Shown piece by piece: positions 46,861 to 55,483 of a DNA stretch of 64,000 bases (position 1 is the stretch's first letter; every line of letters starts with the position of its first letter). The notes under the pieces are model-generated. The model did not search any database and had not been told where the DNA came from. It saw only the letters and a list, made by a program, of their open reading frames with translations. The stretch comes from Gemmatimonadaceae bacterium (GTDB lineage Bacteria; Gemmatimonadota; Gemmatimonadetes; Gemmatimonadales; Gemmatimonadaceae): contig JAICWO010000001.1 of the NCBI GenBank assembly GCA_025934775.1, positions 310,001-374,000 on the forward strand. Direction: 5' to 3'. A program made the position numbers and the translations under genes.

Positions 46861-48264
46861 ATGATCAAGACGATCGTCTGGCATCATCAGCTCGACGGAG
46901 ACGCCGAGCGCGCGCGTGCCATTCTCGATGCATTGCAGCGAGCGGGAATCGGTGCGCTGCCATACGATGCCGGCGAGATCCGCGGCGCGGGCGTCGTCTT
47001 CTTCGAGCGCGTGACCGATGCGCTCTGCGCGTTCGTGCGTGACGCGAGCCGCGGCGGGGCCGAGCGTGTGCTCGCGCTCGCGACGGGCGAGCCGGCGTCG
47101 CCGTCCGCCGTCTGGCGATTGCTGCGCGCGGGCGTGTCGGACGTGTTCGCGCCGGAGCGCGGACGCGACGTTGCCCGCGATGCCGCCGCGCGACTCGAGC
47201 GCTGGCTCGAAGTGGATCACATCCTCGCCTCGTCGCTCGTGCAGGACAATCTCGTCGGCGAGAGCTCAACGTGGCGCGCCGTATTGAGACAGCTGGTGGA
47301 GGCGGCCCGGTTCACCGACGCGCCGATTCTGCTGCAAGGTGAGACGGGCACCGGGAAGGAGCTCGCGGCCCGTCTCGTTCACTCGCTCGACGCGCGGCCG
47401 AACAAGGCGTCGCTCGTCGTGGTCGATTGCGGCGCGATCGCACCCGAGCTGTCGGGGAGCGAATTCTTCGGGCACGAGCGGGGCGCATTCACCGGCGCGG
47501 TCGCGGCGCGCGACGGCGCGTTCGCGCTCGCGAATCAGGGCACGCTCTTTCTCGACGAGCTGGGCGATCTGCCGCTGCGGCTCCAACCGGAGCTGCTGCG
47601 CGCGGTCCAGGAGCGCACGTACAAGCGGCTCGGCAGCAACATGTGGCAGACCACGCACTTTCGGCTGGTGAGCGCGACGCATCGCGATCTCACCGACGGC
47701 GTCGAGCGCGGACACTTTCGCGGCGATCTGTACTACCGCGTCGCGAGCATCACGATTCGACTTCCCGCATTGCGTGACCGGCCCGAGGACGTGCTGCCGC
47801 TCGCGCGCTACTTCATGGCGCAGATGCGCCGCGACCGCGAGCCGCCGCCCGTCGACGAGATTGTAGAGCGCTATCTACTCGAGCGCGCGTATCCGGGAAA
47901 CGTGCGCGATCTGCGCCAACTGGTGACGCGCATCATGCATCGGCACGTGGGCGCCGGCCCGATCACCGCCGGCGACATTCCGGAAGACGAGCGGCCGGAG
48001 TCGGAGTCCGCGGTCGTGTGGCTCGACGCGCCGTTCGAGGGTGCGATCCGGCGCGCGGTCGCACAGGGCGTGTCGCTGCGCGAGATCGGCCAGGCCGCGA
48101 CGGAGACGGCGATCCGGCTCGCGGTCGACATCGAAGGCAATCTCCAGAACGCGGCGCGCCGGCTACACGTGACCGATCGCGCGCTTCAGATGCGCCGCGC
48201 CGCCAAGCGGCAGCAGAGCGGACCGGGCTCCGACGGTGATTCGGTTGTATCTCGCGCCGACTGA
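46861..48264 (+). CDS. Sigma-54-dependent transcriptional activator (AAA+ enhancer-binding protein)
   Basis: Activator of 467 aa that remodels sigma-54 RNA polymerase. The N-terminal 125 residues are a receiver-like fold without a clear phospho-Asp (IVWHHQLDG..., RVLALATGE, GVSDVF), so a non-canonical sensor. The AAA+ core has Walker A GETGTGKE (160-167), the sigma-54-contact loop GAFTGA (208-213), Walker B GTLFLDELGDLPL and the RGDLYYRV block. A C-terminal helix-turn-helix (426-446, GNLQNAARRLHVTDRALQ) follows. It faces, and overlaps the end of, the minus-strand cluster whose promoter is of sigma-54 type, so it is the likely activator. Confidence 0.92.
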   Translation: MIKTIVWHHQLDGDAERARAILDALQRAGIGALPYDAGEIRGAGVVFFERVTDALCAFVRDASRGGAERVLALATGEPASPSAVWRLLRAGVSDVFAPERGRDVARDAAARLERWLEVDHILASSLVQDNLVGESSTWRAVLRQLVEAARFTDAPILLQGETGTGKELAARLVHSLDARPNKASLVVVDCGAIAPELSGSEFFGHERGAFTGAVAARDGAFALANQGTLFLDELGDLPLRLQPELLRAVQERTYKRLGSNMWQTTHFRLVSATHRDLTDGVERGHFRGDLYYRVASITIRLPALRDRPEDVLPLARYFMAQMRRDREPPPVDEIVERYLLERAYPGNVRDLRQLVTRIMHRHVGAGPITAGDIPEDERPESESAVVWLDAPFEGAIRRAVAQGVSLREIGQAATETAIRLAVDIEGNLQNAARRLHVTDRALQMRRAAKRQQSGPGSDGDSVVSRAD

Positions 48265-49002
48265 CGATCGCGACCGGGCGGCCTCGGTCACCCGCAGCCA
48301 GTTGCCGCCGAGGACGAGCGCTTGGTCGTCGGAGCTGAGTCCGAGCGCACGGATCTTCGCGAGCTCGACGCCCGGGTGCAGCCACGGTCCGTCGGAGCCG
48401 AACAACAGCTTGTGCGCGCCGGCGCGTCGTACGACGTCGACCAGGTAGTCGAATCGCTTCACGCCCGAGCTGTCGGTGTGCACGTTGCGATGCCGGACGA
48501 GCTGATCGATCAGCGCGACGTGCGCGCGCCAGTCGTCGTGAAAGCTGCCGATGTGCGGGATGATGAACTGCACGTCCGGATACGACGTCGCGATCATCTC
48601 GACCGATGAGACTTTTCCCATGACGTCGTAGAGCACGGGCAGACGGAAGAAGCGCGCGACGTCGCACACTTCGCGCGTGAGATCGCCGAAGTGGCGGTGC
48701 ACCTTGATGCCCACGAAGCCGTACTGTTCCACTGCCGCGCGCACGAGCGAACGGATGCGCCCGCGATCCGTGACCGTGTTCACGAACGCATAGCCGAAGA
48801 AGCGTTCGGGGCGCGACGCGACGATGCGCGCGACCTGCGCGTTCGCGACGGCAAAGTTCGTGTGGAACGCGGCGAAGAGCACGGTGCGCGTGATCCCGGC
48901 GCGATCCGCGCGCGCGATGTAGCGATCGAGCGGCGCGTTCGTGTCCCACGGCGCGGTGATGCCGTCACCCAAGCCGGCGTGGCAGTGCGAATCGATGATC
49001 AT
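48163..49002 (-). CDS. Amidohydrolase_2-family metal-dependent hydrolase
   Basis: TIM-barrel amidohydrolase of 279 aa. It opens MIIDSHCHAGLGD (HxH metal ligands). GFVGIKVHRHFGD and FIIPHIGSFHDDWRAH carry further metal-site His. LLFGSDGPWLHPGVELAKIRALGL has the final conserved Asp. Family members include decarboxylases and lactonases. I chose the second ATG; a start 27 nt earlier is possible. Its 5' end overlaps the PLP gene by 38 nt (translational coupling). Its last 102 nt overlap the convergent sigma-54 activator gene, which is unusual. Confidence 0.85.
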   Translation of the reverse strand: MIIDSHCHAGLGDGITAPWDTNAPLDRYIARADRAGITRTVLFAAFHTNFAVANAQVARIVASRPERFFGYAFVNTVTDRGRIRSLVRAAVEQYGFVGIKVHRHFGDLTREVCDVARFFRLPVLYDVMGKVSSVEMIATSYPDVQFIIPHIGSFHDDWRAHVALIDQLVRHRNVHTDSSGVKRFDYLVDVVRRAGAHKLLFGSDGPWLHPGVELAKIRALGLSSDDQALVLGGNWLRVTEAARSRSSVGARYNRITVGARSALLPLGGAAHLKRAIGHV

Positions 49003-50104
49003 GGGAGAATGCCATGGAGTGAGAGCCATGCGTCGCGCGATCGAGCACGGCGCGCACCCGTGCCGCGGCGATGTCGATCGCGTGTTCGTCGTGCGCGGCG
49101 GTGATCACGAACGTCAACATCGTCGCGCCGTCATGATTCCGTGTCGGAACCGCTTGGATACCCGCGGCGACGAGCGCTCGATACATCGCGACCGCGTCGA
49201 CATTCGGCGGAAGGCGGAGCGGCTGCACGGGGAAGAGCCAGTGTGTGGCGAGAAGTCCCGTCGCGGCGAGCGGCGCGCGAAAGCGCGCGACGAGCGACGC
49301 GAGGCGATCGCGAATCCGATCGCCGACCGAGCGATTGATGCGGAGCGCGCGATCGGCCGCGAGCAGCGTCGGAATCGACGGCGGACTGCAATGCTCGCGC
49401 GTCGGCGCTTGGCTCCGAAAGCGCGCGGTGAGTGCCGCGTCGGTCGCAAGCACCGCCAGCGGCGCGCCGAAACCCTTCGCGAGCGACGCGATGATGACGA
49501 TTCGGGGATCGCGAACGCCGAGGTGACGCAACGATCCGCCGCCGCCGCGACCATACGGGTTGTCGTCGTCACGCGTGCCGAGCACGCCGAGCGCTTGCGT
49601 GTCGTCGATCACGAGCCGGCCGCCGAATTGGTGTGCGAGGCGGGCGTACGCGGCGAGCGGTGCGACACGGCCGCACGAGGGACAGAGCCCGTCGCAGACG
49701 ACGACGGGCGGATGAGAGAACGGCGCGTCGCGCTCGAGCATCGCGCGGAGCGCGACGGGATCGTGCGTTGGGAAGCTCCGCACACGCGCGCCGAGCGAAC
49801 GCGCGCGATCGATTCCCCACATCGCGATTGGGTAGAGCGAGCGCTCCGTGTAGATCGTCGCACCGCGCGGCGCGAGCAGCGGGAAGAGATCGAGCGCGAT
49901 GTGAAGCGTGGACGTGCCAATCACGGCGTCGTCGGCGCCGACGAGCCGGGCGACGCCGGCGGCAACATCGCGAGCGAGCTGCGGCTCGCGAATCGCCGCC
50001 GGCGTCCCCAAGGTGAGCGCGCTCCACGGCGGCACGTACCTGCTCGGATGAGAGAGCCCGAGGTACAATGCCGACGCGAAGTCGAGCGTCACCGTGTGCC
50101 GCAC
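48965..50104 (-). CDS. PLP-dependent aminotransferase/alpha-oxoamine-synthase-like enzyme
   Basis: Fold-type I PLP enzyme of 379 aa. The fold is shown by SRYVPPWSALTLGTPAA, VVVCDGLCPSCGRVAPLAAYARLAHQFGG, LVIDDTQALGVLG (PLP-ring Asp plus His-like position Q) and the Schiff-base K210 in IIASLAKGFGAPLAVLA. This is the pattern of 8-amino-7-oxononanoate and 2-amino-3-ketobutyrate enzymes, but the sequence is divergent, so no named reaction can be assigned. The GTG start is 2 nt after the 606-aa gene's stop. Fifth-from-promoter position is consistent with one operon. Confidence 0.82.
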   Translation of the reverse strand: MRHTVTLDFASALYLGLSHPSRYVPPWSALTLGTPAAIREPQLARDVAAGVARLVGADDAVIGTSTLHIALDLFPLLAPRGATIYTERSLYPIAMWGIDRARSLGARVRSFPTHDPVALRAMLERDAPFSHPPVVVCDGLCPSCGRVAPLAAYARLAHQFGGRLVIDDTQALGVLGTRDDDNPYGRGGGGSLRHLGVRDPRIVIIASLAKGFGAPLAVLATDAALTARFRSQAPTREHCSPPSIPTLLAADRALRINRSVGDRIRDRLASLVARFRAPLAATGLLATHWLFPVQPLRLPPNVDAVAMYRALVAAGIQAVPTRNHDGATMLTFVITAAHDEHAIDIAAARVRAVLDRATHGSHSMAFSHDHRFALPRRLG

Positions 50105-50106
50105 CG

Positions 50107-51927
50107 CTACACCGTGTGCGGGTTCTGGTGCACCGGTGCCCCGGCCGGCATTGCCGGCTTGAGCAGATTCGACGCGCCGGGACGCACGCCGCCGATCTGC
50201 CGCGGTCCCGGCTGCGCCACCGGCGTGAACGTCCCGCCGGGGCGCGGCACGCGCGACACGACGCCGGTCTGCAGGCGTTCGGTCTGCGTGCGTACTTCCA
50301 TCATCTCGCCGACCGAGAGATCGATCGACGAAACGATCTTGAGCGCATGCGTGTACCGCTGAATCTCCGGACGGAACGCGCGCGCCCAGTTCGCCGCCTG
50401 GTTCTGATCGGTCGTCGTGCTCCAGTCGCCGTAGCGCACCGAGAGCAGGATCTTCTCGCCGAACGCCGCCAGGTCGGCGTAGTTGATCACCGACGCGTCG
50501 TTCCATCCTTGCAGCGACTTCATGGCGTCGACCCGGTCCATCCACTCCTCCGGATACGGCACCATCGTGCGGCCGCGCAGAAAATCCTTCATCTCCGGCC
50601 GCGCGAGGATCCACTGCTGCATCAACATCTCCGCCCGCGCGCGCAGCGTGAGGTCCACGAACTGATTGTGCGCGCCTTCAGAGATCACGAAATGCAGCTC
50701 GCGAAGCGCGTTCAGCATCGGGAACGCGTCGGCGACGATCGTCTTGTCGTCGTCCTCGCGGAAGAAGATCCACGCGAGCCGGAGCAGATCGTGGAACGCC
50801 GGCAGGAACTGCGACCGCACGTCGGCCGGGTGCATCTCGGGAATCGCCTTGCCGACGAGCTGGAGTCCGAGGCCGTGCGCGTACTCGTACGAGCGCCGGT
50901 TCACCGTGAGCCGGTTCACCTCGTCCTGCACGTAGCCCCAGAGCAGATTGCTCAGCGGCCGGAGCGGATCGAGCTCGAAGTTCGCCAGCGGATCGAGGCC
51001 CGCGCCGCGGCGGACGTTCTGGAACCGGAGCGAGATGAGGTTCATCGTCTGCACCATCATCCCCTGCTCGATCCAGTAGTTCCAGATGAGCTCCATGAGC
51101 ACGGGGCTGAGGAGCCGCGAGCGCAGGATGCCGTACGAATCGGGACGCACGCCGAGCTGGAGATTCCGCTTGAACGGCAGCTCGCCCAACCGGCGGCGAA
51201 TGATGTTCATGTACGGCAGCACCTGCGCCGACGTCTGCTCGCTCACGAGATCTCTCAGGTACTCGCCGCGGAAGCGCTCGACGAAATCCTTCGAGAGATA
51301 CGTGCTCGGCGGGTCGAAGCTCGAGACGTCCTCCATCCGTCCGGCCTCGGACATGAGGAAGAAGTCCGTGGCGGCCCGGAGCAGCTGGTACGCGTCGCCG
51401 TTCATCACGCCGTAGGTCGCGATCTTGCGGCGCAGATCGGTGATCTCCTGCGGCAGCTCGCGCGCCTGCGGCGCCGACGACGGATTGAGCTTTGTTTGAT
51501 TGAAGTCCGCTAACGTCTCCTGGGCGTTCCCGGAGAGGCCGGCCGGCGCGAAGCCGGCGTCGACGTCGCTCGCGTCGTCGGTGATCGGCTGTTCATTGCC
51601 GGTCTCGTCGTCGAGCGCGTCGGCCAGGAAGTTCTCCGCGGCGGCGTGCGCGTCGGCCGACGCCCGGTCGTTCCCGAGCGTGGCCTGCGCGTCGAGGATG
51701 CGCTGCCGTTTGCTCACCTGAACGCGCCGCTCTTCCGCCGAGAGCAGCCGGCGCGTGCTGCCCGGCGCCGCGTCGCTCATCACGCGATCAATGAAATCCG
51801 AATACCGGCGGAACGACAGCGCTTCCGTGCGATCCTTCACCACTTCCCAGAGCAGGCGATCGGTGGTGAAAGGAAAGTCGGTGCGCTCGAGCGAGACGTG
51901 GTGGATCGGGGGCAAGTTGTCTGACAT
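50107..51927 (-). CDS. Uncharacterised 606-aa protein of the sigma-54 cluster
   Basis: No family recognised. Predicted cytosolic, mostly helical, without signal peptide or membrane helices. Residues ~85-160 are acidic and probably disordered (ENFLADALDDETGNEQPITDDASDVDAG). The central part (residues ~180-480) is rich in aromatic helices: FFLMSEAGRMEDV, LMELIWNYWIEQGMMVQTMNLI, LLRLAWIFFREDDDKTIVAD. The C-terminal ~60 residues are Pro/Gly-rich and flexible, ending QNPHTV. GGAGG lies 8 nt before the ATG, and the gene starts 12 nt after the HExxH gene. A structural or scaffold role fits its size and composition, but this is speculation. Confidence 0.75.
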   Translation of the reverse strand: MSDNLPPIHHVSLERTDFPFTTDRLLWEVVKDRTEALSFRRYSDFIDRVMSDAAPGSTRRLLSAEERRVQVSKRQRILDAQATLGNDRASADAHAAAENFLADALDDETGNEQPITDDASDVDAGFAPAGLSGNAQETLADFNQTKLNPSSAPQARELPQEITDLRRKIATYGVMNGDAYQLLRAATDFFLMSEAGRMEDVSSFDPPSTYLSKDFVERFRGEYLRDLVSEQTSAQVLPYMNIIRRRLGELPFKRNLQLGVRPDSYGILRSRLLSPVLMELIWNYWIEQGMMVQTMNLISLRFQNVRRGAGLDPLANFELDPLRPLSNLLWGYVQDEVNRLTVNRRSYEYAHGLGLQLVGKAIPEMHPADVRSQFLPAFHDLLRLAWIFFREDDDKTIVADAFPMLNALRELHFVISEGAHNQFVDLTLRARAEMLMQQWILARPEMKDFLRGRTMVPYPEEWMDRVDAMKSLQGWNDASVINYADLAAFGEKILLSVRYGDWSTTTDQNQAANWARAFRPEIQRYTHALKIVSSIDLSVGEMMEVRTQTERLQTGVVSRVPRPGGTFTPVAQPGPRQIGGVRPGASNLLKPAMPAGAPVHQNPHTV

Positions 51928-51939
51928 TCTCTTTCCTCC

Positions 51940-53286
51940 CTAGACGGCGGCGAGCACCGCCGCCGGTGGTAGCTCGGCGCGCTTCCAATGCGACCGGGCA
52001 GGTGGTTGCGCAATCGCGCACACTTCGGCGATGTCGAGCGTGCTGCGCAGCGCCCAATACGTGAGTAGATAGGCGAGCAACTGGCTCTCGGCTTCCGGCG
52101 AGACCACACCGTCGGCGCGCGCCTGTCCGATCGCCGCGAACACGAACGTCGGCGGATAGTCGCGCATCGACATGCGGTTGCCATTCCACGCGCGCCACTG
52201 TTCCATCAACTGCCGCGGATGGCGGTCGCCGAGCCGCATGACCTGGAGCAGCGAGCGTCCGCCGAGCGACGGCGGCGAGTGCGCGAGCAGCACGCGCACG
52301 AATGCGGGAATCGATTCCTCGAGCAGCGCGAACGCTTGCTGCTGCGCCGGCGAGGCCGTGGTCACGGGATAGAGCTCGCCCCAGAGCGTCGCGAGGCGAT
52401 CCCACTGCGGATGCGGATACAGCGCCGCTCCCATCGCGCAGCTCAACTTCACGCGAATCCACGGCGCGGGATGCGGATCTTCAGGATTCACACGAAAGAC
52501 GAACGCGCGCGGCAGACTCACGACGCCGATCAACCCGAGCGGCGCGGCGATGCCGACCTTCGACACCGACCAGAGATCGGCGACGATCTCGGAGATCCAC
52601 CGCTCCCAGAGTTGCCACGCGACCGCCGCCGGGCCGCCGAGCCGCTGTTTACCGTGCAACATCGTGCGCAGCGATTCGACGAGGCCGAGCAGCGCCGCGC
52701 CCTGATGACCGACTTCGTGCACCAGCGACGAGGCAATCCCGCTGCCGACCATGCGCTCCCGCGGCACGCGAATCACCGCGACGGGATTCTCGCCGCCGCC
52801 CGGGAGTCGCGTCCGCGCGCGCCGAATCGCGGCGCCGGGATCGCGCACGAGGTAGCAGATCACCGGCGGCGGCTTCTTGATTCCGGGCAGCTCCAGCGCT
52901 TCGGCGGCGACCACGTCGAGGCCACCGATGAACACGCCGGTCTCGTGCTCGCTGCGCTGTGTCAACACTTCCGCGAAAATGTCGAACTGCGAAAGCACGA
53001 CGTTGAAGCGGAGTCGAAGAAACGTGAATCGACGCTGGAGCTCGACCGCGGTGGCGTGCCGGCCTTCCGGGCTGCGAATCCAGCGCAGAAAACCGGTAAC
53101 GCGCGCGCGCAGCTCCTGACGTCCGCCGGCGAGGTAGCTCTCGATCGCCGATTGCGCGGCGACCGTGACCGACGCCGCCGGCACGGACGGCGTGAGCAGC
53201 GCGAACGGCTTCACGCGCGCGAGTCGCGTGAGCAGCCCTCGAGCTTCCTGCTCGAGGAACCGCGCGGCGGGAGACGTGGTGTTCAC
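51940..53286 (-). CDS. Predicted HExxH zinc metallopeptidase of unknown family
   Basis: Protein of 448 aa without signal peptide. The metal motif HEVGH (190-194) lies in SGIASSLVHEVGHQGAALLG, and a candidate third ligand E233 follows in ERWISEIVADLWSVSKVG, the gluzincin arrangement. The N-terminal half is helical (FLRWIRSPEGRHATAVELQRRFTFLRLRF); the C-terminal half also. GTG start, 9 nt after the acidic-repeat gene. I cannot match it to a named peptidase family. It may process a product of the cluster, most obviously the repeat protein encoded just before it. Confidence 0.78.
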   Translation of the reverse strand: MNTTSPAARFLEQEARGLLTRLARVKPFALLTPSVPAASVTVAAQSAIESYLAGGRQELRARVTGFLRWIRSPEGRHATAVELQRRFTFLRLRFNVVLSQFDIFAEVLTQRSEHETGVFIGGLDVVAAEALELPGIKKPPPVICYLVRDPGAAIRRARTRLPGGGENPVAVIRVPRERMVGSGIASSLVHEVGHQGAALLGLVESLRTMLHGKQRLGGPAAVAWQLWERWISEIVADLWSVSKVGIAAPLGLIGVVSLPRAFVFRVNPEDPHPAPWIRVKLSCAMGAALYPHPQWDRLATLWGELYPVTTASPAQQQAFALLEESIPAFVRVLLAHSPPSLGGRSLLQVMRLGDRHPRQLMEQWRAWNGNRMSMRDYPPTFVFAAIGQARADGVVSPEAESQLLAYLLTYWALRSTLDIAEVCAIAQPPARSHWKRAELPPAAVLAAV

Positions 53287-53295
53287 GGCGCCGCC

Positions 53296-54357
53296 TCAGA
53301 CGCCGACGAGCACGATCTTGCGGCCGCGGCGATACCACCGCCCGGTGCGCGTGAACCCGACGGGCGTCGTGTACGACGAGCCGTTCGTCGAGCCGACGTA
53401 GCTCGGCGTCTCGATGCTGGGCGCGACGTAGCCGGCGCCGAACATGGGGCCCGCGTAGGTCGGTGCCCCGCCGTACGTGGGCGCGCCAACCGCGGCGACG
53501 GCGCCGTACGTGCCGCGGCGATGCGCGCCATGGTGCCGGTGAATCGGATGCGACGGGTGCGTTGGGCGCACCGGCGTCACGGTGTGCGGGCGCGCGGCGT
53601 GCGCCTGCTTGACGGCGTGCGAGATGTTCGCGACGACTTTCGGCCGGAGGAGGCCGGGGATGTGCTTGCGCGCGGCGACGATCGTCGCGGCCTTCAACGC
53701 CTTGGCCGGCGGCACGTGCGTCGGTGTCTTGGACAGCTTCTTCGCGGCGGTGCCGGTGAAGCGAACGACACGCTTCGCGGCTTCGAACTCGCGGTCCTGC
53801 GGGCTCAGTCCCTCGAACTCGAGACCGAACATGTTGCCGGCCGCCGAGGCGAGCTTGCCGCCGATCGCGCCGCCGACGCCGGGCAACACGAGATTGCCGA
53901 GCGCCGCGCCGGCCGCGGGGAGCGCCACCTTGGCCGCCTTCTTCGCGATGCCGCCGAGCGCCTTGCCCACGGGGCTGTTCGCGATGTTGCCGACGAACTT
54001 GCCGGCCTTCTTGATCAGCCCACCGAGGAACTGTTCCAGTTCCTCCTCGCTCTGCACGCCGAGGAGCTCGGAGGCAAGCTCCATCTCGGTGACTTCGTCG
54101 AACACGGGCGCGCTCTCGCCCTCGTACTCGCCTTCGCCGAGGAAGCCCTCGCCCTCGTACTCGCCGCCGAGCAGACCGCCGACGATGTCGCCGAGGAATC
54201 CTTCGCCCTCGCCCTCACCTTCGCCCTCGTACTCGCCGCCGAGCAATCCGCCGACGACGTCACCGAGGAATTCCTCACCCTCGCCCTCGTACTCCTGCGA
54301 CGCATCGAGCTCGCCGAATTCGCTCGCCTCTTGGATCGTGCGGTCCACGTCGTGCAT
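53296..54357 (-). CDS. Acidic Glu-Gly-Tyr repeat / glycine-zipper protein
   Basis: Modular protein of 353 aa, family not named. Residues 22-81 are acidic repeats: FLGDVVGGLLGGEYEGEG (30-47), FLGDIVGGLLGGEYEGEG (54-71) and a half unit (72-81). A short helical segment (VTEMELASELLGVQSEEELEQFLGG) links to a basic, Gly/Ala-zipper-like region (114-178, KKAGKFVGNIAN..., LPGVGGAIGGKLASAAGNMFG) that could insert in or pass a membrane. A basic stretch (residues ~186-235), a His/Pro/Tyr-rich part and the C-terminal GRWYRRGRKIVLVGV follow. GGGAGG precedes the ATG by 5 nt. First gene after the sigma-54 promoter. No signal peptide. Confidence 0.82.
   Translation of the reverse strand: MHDVDRTIQEASEFGELDASQEYEGEGEEFLGDVVGGLLGGEYEGEGEGEGEGFLGDIVGGLLGGEYEGEGFLGEGEYEGESAPVFDEVTEMELASELLGVQSEEELEQFLGGLIKKAGKFVGNIANSPVGKALGGIAKKAAKVALPAAGAALGNLVLPGVGGAIGGKLASAAGNMFGLEFEGLSPQDREFEAAKRVVRFTGTAAKKLSKTPTHVPPAKALKAATIVAARKHIPGLLRPKVVANISHAVKQAHAARPHTVTPVRPTHPSHPIHRHHGAHRRGTYGAVAAVGAPTYGGAPTYAGPMFGAGYVAPSIETPSYVGSTNGSSYTTPVGFTRTGRWYRRGRKIVLVGV
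54145..54270 (-). repeat. In-gene tandem repeat coding FLGD[V/I]VGGLLGGEYEGEG
   Basis: Two 54-nt direct repeats, separated by 18 nt of Glu-Gly codons, encode residues 30-47 and 54-71 of the acidic-repeat protein. They differ by one amino acid (V/I). Copy number could vary between strains. Confidence 0.8.
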
Positions 54358-54413
54358 GGTTGCCTCCCGTTCAGGTGGTGTGAGATGGGACCAGCCAACG
54401 GGACGGCGGACCG

Positions 54414-54429
54414 TGCAGCGGGAGTGCCA
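54414..54429 (-). promoter_or_regulatory. Sigma-54 (-24/-12) promoter of the unknown cluster
   Basis: On the minus strand TGGCACTCCCGCTGCA has GG and GC separated by exactly 10 nt and agrees with the consensus TGGCAC-N5-TTGCA at all but one specified base. Predicted start of transcription is near 54403, 46 nt before the ATG of the acidic-repeat gene. The window encodes a sigma-54 activator at the far end of the same cluster. Confidence 0.8.
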
Positions 54430-54460: not shown

Positions 54461-54474
54461 CGAAGCAGGCTTCG
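54461..54474. promoter_or_regulatory. 14-bp palindrome, candidate activator (UAS) site
   Basis: CGAAGCAGGCTTCG is a dyad with perfect 6-nt arms, 32 nt upstream of the -24 element. It could bind the activator's helix-turn-helix, though enhancer sites usually lie further away. Confidence 0.35.
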
Positions 54475-54551
54475 GTAAACAGGCGACCTCGCGCGAACCG
54501 GACGAAGCCACGTTCGGGGCCGCGAATGTTTGGGAGTGAAATGCAGAACGA

Positions 54552-54577
54552 GCCGGGATCGACGATTCGATCCCGGC
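54552..54577 (-). terminator. Hairpin terminator of the 233-aa gene
   Basis: GCCGGGATCGA-CGAT-TCGATCCCGGC: 11-bp perfect stem and 4-nt loop, 24 nt after the stop codon. It separates this gene from the sigma-54-driven cluster downstream. Confidence 0.75.
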
Positions 54578-54601: not shown

Positions 54602-55303
54602 TCAGCGTTTCGCGCGCGCTTTCGACGTCGCGGCCGGCGCTGTAGCGGTTTGAAGCACTTGCTCGCGAACGTACGTGCCGGCCGGCGTTTCGTCGCGGAA
54701 CAGTTCCCGTTCCGTGACCTGCGTGTTCGGGCGATACTCACCGAATCGCACACCGGCGACCGGCCCGGCCTGCGCGACGGGCGCCGGGTTCTCCGCCTTG
54801 GCGGAGAGAGCCTCCAGCCGCTTCGCCCACTCCTGTTTCTGTCCGAGCGTCGCGTCGGCGACGACGAGCTCCGTGTTCGTCTTGAGCAGCTCGTCGCTGA
54901 TGATGCACCGCGCTTCGTCGCCGCAGAGATTCACGCGGAGCTCGATCTCGCGGTCGATCCGCTCGATGACATGCCGTAGCGTGGCGACCGTGGTCTGGAC
55001 GTCCTTCGCTTGCGCGTCGTAGGCGACGCACGCGGCCTGCACCTGGCTCGCGGTGGCGGGATCGACGTCGCAGCCGGCCGCGCGTGGCAGGGAGGCGAAG
55101 CTCGCGGCGAGCCCCGTGACGAGGCTGTGCCCGACGCGCGCGAAGTGGTCGTACTGCTGGACCACGGTGCCGCGCACGCTGAACAGATCGCGGAGGACCG
55201 TCGCGTGGTCGGTCGTGTCGGTGGGGGTGGTGTTCGTGGCGGGTCCGTTCGACGCGAATCCGCTGGTGAAGGTGGAGTCCTGGACTGCCATGAAGTTCGC
55301 CAT
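54602..55303 (-). CDS. Hypothetical helical protein (233 aa) upstream of the sigma-54 cluster
   Basis: Unrecognised protein. After a Thr-rich N terminus (STFTSGFASNGPATNTTPTDTTD) comes a long, mostly helical region (LRDLFSVRGTVVQQYDHFARVGHSLVTGL..., VQTTVATLRHVIERIDREIELRVNL, TLGQKQEWAKRLEALSAKAE), likely a coiled-coil bundle. Cys residues lie in GCDVDPA, AACVAY, NLCGDEARCI. The C terminus is Ala/Lys-rich. GGAGG lies 5 nt before the ATG. It has its own promoter (55456..55483) and terminator. Its position suggests a related role to the cluster, but this is inference. Confidence 0.72.
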   Translation of the reverse strand: MANFMAVQDSTFTSGFASNGPATNTTPTDTTDHATVLRDLFSVRGTVVQQYDHFARVGHSLVTGLAASFASLPRAAGCDVDPATASQVQAACVAYDAQAKDVQTTVATLRHVIERIDREIELRVNLCGDEARCIISDELLKTNTELVVADATLGQKQEWAKRLEALSAKAENPAPVAQAGPVAGVRFGEYRPNTQVTERELFRDETPAGTYVREQVLQTATAPAATSKARAKR

Positions 55304-55455
55304 GTGCCCTCCGTGGAACGTACCGAGCGTTCCCGAATGCGCTCGCGTCGAATCGGCGAGGCGGACCCCACGGCGGCCACGCGCAGCTCGCGATCGACGG
55401 TCGTTGGCGCGCACACGCGCAGAGCGCGGAGTTGAGGCGCGCAACGAGGGCAGCA

Positions 55456-55483
55456 AGAATGAAAGGTCTTACTGATTTGTCAA
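55456..55483 (-). promoter_or_regulatory. Sigma-70-type promoter of the 233-aa gene
   Basis: On minus, TTGACA (55483..55478), 16-nt spacer, CATTCT (55461..55456), in a locally AT-rich island. The predicted leader is about 150 nt. Confidence 0.55.

What the first reader, a model, noticed from the sequence alone, without database searches (positions are those of the whole stretch)
48163..54429. A sigma-54-controlled module of uncharacterised genes with its own activator
Five minus-strand genes with gaps of 12 nt or less, or overlaps (acidic-repeat protein, HExxH protein, 606-aa unknown, PLP enzyme, amidohydrolase), follow a near-perfect -24/-12 promoter. A sigma-54 activator gene faces the end of the cluster and overlaps its last gene. 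No other clear sigma-54 promoter was seen. Combining a putative protease, a possibly membrane-active repeat protein and two small-molecule enzymes under one inducible promoter suggests a dedicated system, for example a processed secreted or antagonistic product with modification enzymes. The function is inference; the layout is visible.
Basis: partly seen in the sequence, partly recalled or inferred. Interest (0 to 1): 0.85.

Follow-up and report, generated by a model that had tools for sequence, protein, structure and literature searches.

The report
Undescribed sigma-54-switched bacterial gene module
A set of six neighbouring genes, three of them matching no known protein family, recurs in the same order in unrelated soil and water bacteria with its own dedicated on-switch, and it often carries wall-cutting, DNA-cutting or protein-cutting enzymes, so it may be an uncatalogued inducible weapon or self-sacrifice system.

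Summary
The six-gene block with its sigma-54 promoter at 54414-54429 (-) is a conserved module found in Gemmatimonadota, Acidobacteriota, Pseudomonadota, Bacteroidota and one Streptomyces contig (23 loci), in roughly 1-2% of sampled genomes. Its first three genes (acidic/Gly-zipper protein, HExxH zincin, 606-aa helical protein) co-occur in 23/23 loci and match no Pfam, NCBIfam, PADLOC or PDB family. A -24/-12 site precedes the first gene in 21/21 assessable loci. I also found a dyad, CGAA-N6-TTCG, usually paired 41-44 bp apart, upstream of that promoter in 21/21 loci (39 sites, 0.4 expected): the likely enhancer for the convergent activator. Most relatives also carry swappable genes (GIY-YIG nuclease, glucosaminidase, VanY, trypsin, OmpA, M20), several with peptidoglycan-binding domains. 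A second type (LuxR regulator, no dyads) shares the zincin, amidohydrolase and M20 peptidase. Best functional reading: a tightly silenced, inducible system in which the zincin unmasks an acidic-pro/cationic-Gly-zipper protein that acts with a lytic or toxic cargo. The regulation is very well supported; the function is inference (about 0.4). I found no description in the literature I could search.

The parts
54414..54429 (-). sigma-54 (-24/-12) promoter TGGCACTCCCGCTGCA; predicted start of transcription about 54403
   Evidence: only exact match in the window; equivalent site upstream of the first gene in 21/21 assessable relatives
54461..54474 (-). proximal CGAAN6TTCG dyad, candidate enhancer site for the activator
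   Evidence: 39 sites in 21/21 loci, 0.4 expected; pairs mostly 41-44 bp apart
54503..54516 (-). distal CGAAN6TTCG dyad, 42 bp from the proximal one
53296..54357 (-). gene 1: 353-aa protein; acidic repeats (net charge -32 in first third), Gly-zipper/Ala-rich middle, basic end with conserved C-terminal GRWxRRGxxIVLxGV
   Evidence: no Pfam/NCBIfam/PADLOC/PDB family
51940..53286 (-). gene 2: 448-aa zincin-like metallopeptidase, HEVGH (190-194) plus SEIVAD (Glu233)
   Evidence: catalytic residues invariant in 24 sequences; AF2 pLDDT 78; BepA (M48) among VIA-align hits, Z 7.3 over residues 97-410
50107..51927 (-). gene 3: 606-aa core protein of unknown fold; conserved C-terminal 400 aa, variable N-terminal part
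   Evidence: AF2 model failed
48965..50104 (-). gene 4: 379-aa PLP enzyme of the alpha-oxoamine synthase fold (BioF-like), active-site Lys conserved, DDxH replaced by DDTQ
48163..49029 (-). gene 5: Amidohydro_2 family metal hydrolase
   Evidence: Pfam 8e-18; HxH, His and Asp ligands conserved in 16 loci
46861..48264 (+). gene 6: convergent sigma-54 activator: divergent N-terminal domain, AAA+ with GAFTGA, C-terminal helix-turn-helix-like region
   Evidence: Pfam PF00158 1e-54; present next to the module in 19/19 loci whose contig extends far enough

Best explanation
It is a horizontally spread, self-contained inducible module. Shown by sequence conservation: an acidic/Gly-zipper protein, a zincin and a helical core protein form an obligate trio, driven by a sigma-54 promoter preceded by (usually paired) CGAAN6TTCG dyads, with a convergent sigma-54 activator gene in almost every copy. 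Inferred: the activator binds the dyads and is triggered through its divergent N-terminal domain. Sigma-54 promoters are near-silent without their ATPase activator, so genes without immunity partners can be kept off. Once on, the zincin cuts away the acidic N-terminal part of gene 1 and frees a cationic, Gly-zipper, membrane- or polymer-active domain. The core protein assembles or escorts it, together with a locus-specific cargo where one is present (peptidoglycan-binding lytic enzyme, GIY-YIG nuclease, protease). The PLP enzyme, amidohydrolase and M20 peptidase make or remodel a small molecule that tunes or arms the system. None of the proteins examined has an obvious Sec signal, so release is by cell lysis or an unknown route. 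The net effect would be an attack on neighbours or a self-sacrificing release or killing response. The window holds a minimal copy without the cargo gene.
For: Trio 23/23 and activator 19/19 where the contig extends. Promoter 21/21. Dyads 39 found against 0.4 expected, with regular spacing. rpoN in 19/20 module genomes; the exception is the Streptomyces genome, whose contig is cut off before the promoter region. Swappable cargo with PG_binding_1, GIY-YIG, glucosaminidase, VanY, trypsin, OmpA, M20. Fusion of peptidoglycan-binding/GIY-YIG cargo to the gene-1 domain in one Nitrosomonas ORF. Acidic-then-basic charge layout of gene 1 in both system types (-32/+12/+13 here, -46/+9/+28 in L070), and no signal-peptide-like N-terminus. 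Zincin adjacent in every copy; zincin, amidohydrolase (57%) and M20 (44%) shared with the LuxR-regulated type.
Against: No immunity gene, secretion machine or target is identified. No cargo gene in the window's copy. The 606-aa protein has no fold assignment. Cleavage of gene 1 by the zincin is untested. The PLP enzyme and amidohydrolase have no clear place in a purely toxic system. Peptidoglycan-binding cargo could equally remodel the producer's own wall.
Confidence: 0.4

Rival explanations
1. A self-directed envelope programme: under envelope stress the activator turns on a wall-associated protein complex (peptidoglycan-binding proteins, OmpA-like anchors, Gly-zipper membrane protein, M48-like quality-control protease) that repairs or remodels the producer's own envelope or triggers dormancy.
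For: M48 peptidases such as BepA act in outer-membrane quality control (own knowledge); the BepA-like fold hit; OmpA and PG_binding_1 domains; no immunity genes next to cargo.
Against: No Sec signals on the proteins examined, so most components would stay in the cytoplasm; cargo also includes GIY-YIG nuclease-like proteins; very patchy distribution (about 1-2% of genomes) is unusual for envelope maintenance.
Confidence: 0.25
2. A biosynthetic cluster: gene 1 is a large precursor matured by the zincin, and the alpha-oxoamine-synthase-like enzyme, amidohydrolase and M20 peptidase build a small molecule or a modified polypeptide; cargo genes are passengers.
For: PLP enzyme related to BioF/CqsA/serine palmitoyltransferase; amidohydrolase and M20 conserved across both system types; conserved C-terminal motif of gene 1.
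Against: PLP enzyme missing in L021, L057, L059 and amidohydrolase missing in L015, L016, L020 although the trio remains, so the small-molecule part is dispensable; no transporter, carrier protein or known modification enzyme.
Confidence: 0.2
3. An anti-phage or abortive-infection system switched on by a nucleotide or RNA-derived signal sensed by the activator.
For: The activator's AAA+/HTH part is closest to PADLOC's RtcR/PspF2 group; nuclease, protease and lytic cargo; patchy spread.
Against: The RtcR match covers only the AAA+/HTH part, not the CARF sensor; N-terminal domain matches nothing; no PADLOC hits for the core; no close relative found in phage records or viral contigs, though defence genes need not occur there.
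Confidence: 0.12

Closest known systems
PVC/eCIS toxin systems (PMC3482391)
   Same: A zincin-family metallopeptidase goes with a swappable set of effectors that includes glucosaminidase, OmpA-type and peptidase domains; the paper notes that many PVC loci lack immunity genes.
   Different: The zincin is a separate protein and not the PVC-metallopeptidase by Pfam; no sheath gene in the window's genome or in 11 further module genomes of 20 searched; driven by sigma-54.
Zincin plus small-protein peptide-processing systems of multicellular bacteria (PMC7159879)
   Same: A zincin gene paired with the gene of its presumed protein substrate.
   Different: The substrate here is a 200-350 aa acidic/Gly-zipper protein, and there is no VMAP, MoxR-vWA or NTPase core in the module.
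RtcR/RtcAB RNA-repair operon
   Same: Cluster controlled by a sigma-54 activator; the AAA+/HTH parts align.
   Different: No CARF domain detected, no RNA ligase or cyclase genes, activator convergent at the far end.
BioF/CqsA/serine palmitoyltransferase (alpha-oxoamine synthases)
   Same: Same PLP-enzyme family by sequence, active-site Lys kept.
   Different: Short N-terminus and DDTQ in place of the canonical DDxH, Gln invariant in this family.
BepA (M48 peptidase)
   Same: Zincin fold resemblance over the catalytic half, HExxH plus Glu.
   Different: No Pfam M48 match, no signal peptide, unrelated N-terminal helical bundle.

Membership tests
sigma-54/enhancer-binding-protein regulated operon | -24/-12 promoter upstream of the first gene | tested here: met
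   window 54414-54429 and 21/21 assessable relatives
sigma-54/enhancer-binding-protein regulated operon | activator with AAA+ domain, Walker A, GAFTGA; rpoN in the genome | tested here: met
   PF00158 1e-54; conserved motif residues; rpoN at C16, 19/20 module genomes
sigma-54/enhancer-binding-protein regulated operon | upstream enhancer sites | tested here: met
   CGAAN6TTCG dyads, 21/21 loci; binding itself untested
sigma-54/enhancer-binding-protein regulated operon | transcription lost without rpoN or activator | not testable with these tools
   needs transcript measurement in mutants
M48-type zincin peptidase | HExxH and downstream Glu ligand | tested here: met
   H190, E191, H194, E233 conserved in 24 sequences
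M48-type zincin peptidase | sequence match to the M48 family | tested here: not met
   no Pfam or NCBIfam match at E <= 1; fold resemblance only
alpha-oxoamine synthase | fold-type I PLP enzyme with active-site Lys | tested here: met
   BioF-family match 2e-19, K206 of the aligned domain conserved
alpha-oxoamine synthase | His in the DDxH motif next to PLP | tested here: not met
   Gln conserved in the 16 aligned sequences, alignment to 5jay
Amidohydro_2 (PF04909) | profile match above cut-off and metal ligands | tested here: met
   65.6 bits against cut-off 26.4; HxH, H150, D204 of the aligned domain
PVC/eCIS effector system | contractile sheath gene in the genome | tested here: not met
   none in the window's genome, 8 of 20 module genomes positive
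PVC/eCIS effector system | PVC-metallopeptidase domain | tested here: not met
   no Pfam match in the zincin
polymorphic toxin system | immunity gene next to the toxin | tested here: inconclusive
   no room for a further gene between cargo and amidohydrolase in L012 and L055; not examined in every locus
known anti-phage defence system | match to a PADLOC model | tested here: not met
   only the activator's AAA+/HTH part matches; relatives give one weak cargo hit
RtcR-type regulator | N-terminal CARF domain | tested here: not met
   match begins at profile position 165 of 481; N-terminal domain matches no Pfam family

The most novel reading that the evidence does not exclude
An undescribed, widely transferred class of bacterial system with at least two regulatory types (sigma-54 with CGAAN6TTCG dyads, and LuxR-type), built on an acidic-pro/Gly-zipper protein, a dedicated zincin and a helical core protein, which activates and delivers or releases interchangeable lytic, nuclease and protease cargo without a Sec signal and without immunity genes.
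Probability: 0.35. Interest if true: 0.92.

Novelty: categorically new. Interest (0 to 1): 0.8.

Why it matters
Three protein families with no catalogue entry form an obligate unit in several phyla, and the unit comes with a precise regulatory signature that makes it findable in any genome and testable at once. If the cargo reading is right, it is a way of arming cells that current weapon and defence catalogues miss, with tight sigma-54 control in place of immunity genes. Even if the function proves to be different, the module gives a clean case of one activator, one operator pair and one operon moving together between phyla.

Tried and rejected
AF2 of the 606-aa protein failed (pLDDT 38), and searches of the core trio against PDB sequences gave nothing meaningful. 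Foldseek with the zincin model gave no significant hit in PDB or viral models. No close relative was found in phage records or viral contigs, and the full operator-promoter pattern is absent from viral contigs, so phage origin was not pursued. eCIS delivery was set aside because sheath genes are absent in most module genomes. A receiver domain in the activator's N-terminus was suspected by eye but no Pfam domain was detected. Eight other sigma-54-like sites of this genome were inspected as possible members of a larger regulon: none has a dyad pair. Homology of the 606-aa core to the 388-aa core of the LuxR type is only suggestive (hhalign E 0.0016, probability 16%). Nine keyword searches found no paper describing the cluster. 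The library holds open-licence papers only, so prior description elsewhere is not excluded.
Full report
Observation. The six ORFs, their tight spacing and the -24/-12 site are present as described. The PLP gene starts at GTG 50104, 2 nt after the 606-aa stop codon. The promoter sequence TGGCACTCCCGCTGCA is the only exact match of TGGCAYN5YTGCW in the window and one of 9 in the 4.88 Mb genome, where the reversed control pattern occurs 39 times. The genome encodes one RpoN and about 13 complete sigma-54 activator domains.

Conservation. A search with the 606-aa protein and then with a profile of the HExxH protein found relatives in 7 of 298 genomes of the window's own phylum, 5 of 398 in the phylum of a Methylobacterium locus, 4 of 297 in the phylum of an Acidobacteriota locus and 5 of 300 in the order of a Massilia locus (a few of the hits are distant ones), plus single loci in Bacteroidota and on a short Streptomyces contig and on Ensifer, Rhizobium and Paraburkholderia plasmids. 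In 23 loci compared with profiles of all six proteins the order is always acidic protein (1-2 copies), HExxH, 606-aa core. The PLP enzyme is present in 16 of 19 complete loci, the amidohydrolase in 16 of 19, and the sigma-54 activator gene in 19 of 19, convergent with the cluster in all but one (L017, divergent). A tree of the HExxH protein mixes phyla in places but most inner branches are weakly supported, so transfer is likely but not proven branch by branch.

Regulation. In 21 of the 23 loci the DNA upstream of the first gene is available in full (the Streptomyces contig and L053 are cut short); all 21 have a -24/-12-like site, in most of them about 20-90 nt before a possible start codon of the first gene (the mechanical start call is uncertain in some loci, and L051 and L021 have weaker sites). 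Searching for an enhancer, I noticed dyads upstream. The strict motif CGAA-N6-TTCG occurs 39 times in 5,460 bp upstream of these promoters against 0.4 expected from the rest of the same loci, at least once in 21 of 21 loci. Two copies occur in 18 loci, 41-44 bp apart in 17 of them and 31 bp in one, and the proximal copy often lies at about -45, -57 or -79 relative to the -24 element, which is close to whole helical turns. In 769 kb of fetched DNA (with duplicates) such pairs are almost confined to these promoters. The eight other sigma-54-like sites of this genome lack a pair, as do four loci of the LuxR-regulated type in the stretches checked. I therefore assign the dyads to the module's own activator; this is an inference from co-occurrence, binding is untested. 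RpoN is present in 19 of 20 module genomes; the exception is the Streptomyces genome.

Proteins. Gene 1 has a strongly acidic first third, a Gly/Ala-rich middle and a basic rest (net charge -32, +12, +13), with a conserved C-terminal GRWxRRGxxIVLxGV motif. Gene 2 keeps HEVGH and a downstream Glu in 24 sequences; its AF2 model (pLDDT 78) shows BepA, an M48 peptidase, among weak structural matches (Z 7.3, 164 residues), and it has no Pfam match. Gene 3 has about 90 near-invariant positions in its C-terminal 400 residues and a variable N-terminal part, with a SpaA/SdrD-like domain in L012; its fold is unknown. Gene 4 is a BioF-like PLP enzyme with Gln where alpha-oxoamine synthases have His. Gene 5 is an Amidohydro_2 hydrolase with conserved ligands. 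The activator has GAFTGA and Walker motifs and an unassigned N-terminal domain. Genes 1-3 match nothing in Pfam, NCBIfam or PADLOC at meaningful scores; gene 1 has only a weak, probably compositional match to a tape-measure profile in PHROGs.

Cargo. Between gene 4 and gene 5 most relatives have one to three further genes: PG_binding_1 plus a GIY-YIG region, PG_binding_1 plus DUF2272 plus glucosaminidase, PG_binding_1 plus VanY, PG_binding_1 plus OmpA, trypsin-like and M20 peptidases. GIY-YIG motifs with the downstream Arg, Glu and Asn can be read in several of them. In Nitrosomonas (L012) the peptidoglycan-binding/GIY-YIG protein is fused to a gene-1 domain, while in L019 and L064 the two are neighbouring genes, which suggests that cargo and gene-1 protein act together. 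None of the cargo or core proteins examined has an N-terminal hydrophobic segment like a signal peptide. The window's own locus has no gene in this position.

A second type. A Paraburkholderia plasmid (L065) and genomes G403, G475 and G1020 (L058, L070, L063) carry a distant HExxH relative (hhalign 99.8%) next to acidic/zipper/basic proteins and a LuxR-type regulator. L065 also has an M20 peptidase (44% to that of L011) and an amidohydrolase 57% identical to the window's; L070 has GIY-YIG-like and trypsin-like genes. Its 388-aa core is related to proteins on Burkholderia and Tolypothrix plasmids beside subtilase, hydrolase and peptidoglycan-binding genes. Whether the 606-aa core is a distant relative of the 388-aa core is open (E 0.0016).

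Interpretation. Well supported: a dedicated, transferable, sigma-54-switched module with its own activator and operator pair. Inferred: the zincin matures the gene-1 protein, the core protein and cargo act with it, and the product damages cells, either neighbours or the producer. Tight sigma-54 silencing (established knowledge of this promoter class) would explain how nuclease- or lysin-like cargo can be carried without immunity genes. Rivals are an envelope-stress programme, a biosynthetic cluster and a phage-defence system; none is excluded. Closest known designs are PVC/eCIS effector sets (PMC3482391) and zincin-based peptide processing (PMC7159879), but defining features of the first were tested and not met and the core of the second is absent. 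Novelty is judged against the family libraries, PADLOC, the PDB and an open-licence paper library; description elsewhere cannot be excluded.

Noticed in passing
window 54602-55456 (-): A 284-aa ORF directly upstream of the promoter has a 30%-identical relative in the same place in L011 (5495-6148); no Pfam family. It lies upstream of the sigma-54 promoter and is probably not part of the operon.
   Followed up: partly
L065 8561-17459, L058 6981-13237, L070 4178-14692, L063 3-4655: A second, LuxR-regulated type of the system with a distant zincin, acidic/zipper/basic proteins and, in L065, the same amidohydrolase and an M20 peptidase.
   Followed up: partly
L066 2542-14447 and L067 7495-18713: Plasmid clusters in Burkholderia pyrrocinia and Tolypothrix with proteins related to the 388-aa core, beside S8 subtilases, alpha/beta hydrolase, amidase and peptidoglycan-binding genes: perhaps a third type.
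   Followed up: no
L012 11551-13050: One Nitrosomonas ORF joins a peptidoglycan-binding domain, a GIY-YIG region and a gene-1 domain.
   Followed up: partly
L060 6605-13877: Large low-GC proteins with repeated SPFL motifs next to a distant zincin relative; masked stretches prevent full reading.
   Followed up: no
L014 (Streptomyces scabichelini contig, 5.3 kb): The trio in a Streptomyces genome without rpoN; the contig ends before any promoter, so either another regulator is used or the contig is foreign.
   Followed up: partly
window 54552-54577 (-), and L011 at the same place: A strong perfect hairpin (GCCGGGATCGA..TCGATCCCGGC) just after the upstream gene, conserved in L011; looks like that gene's terminator.
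   Followed up: no
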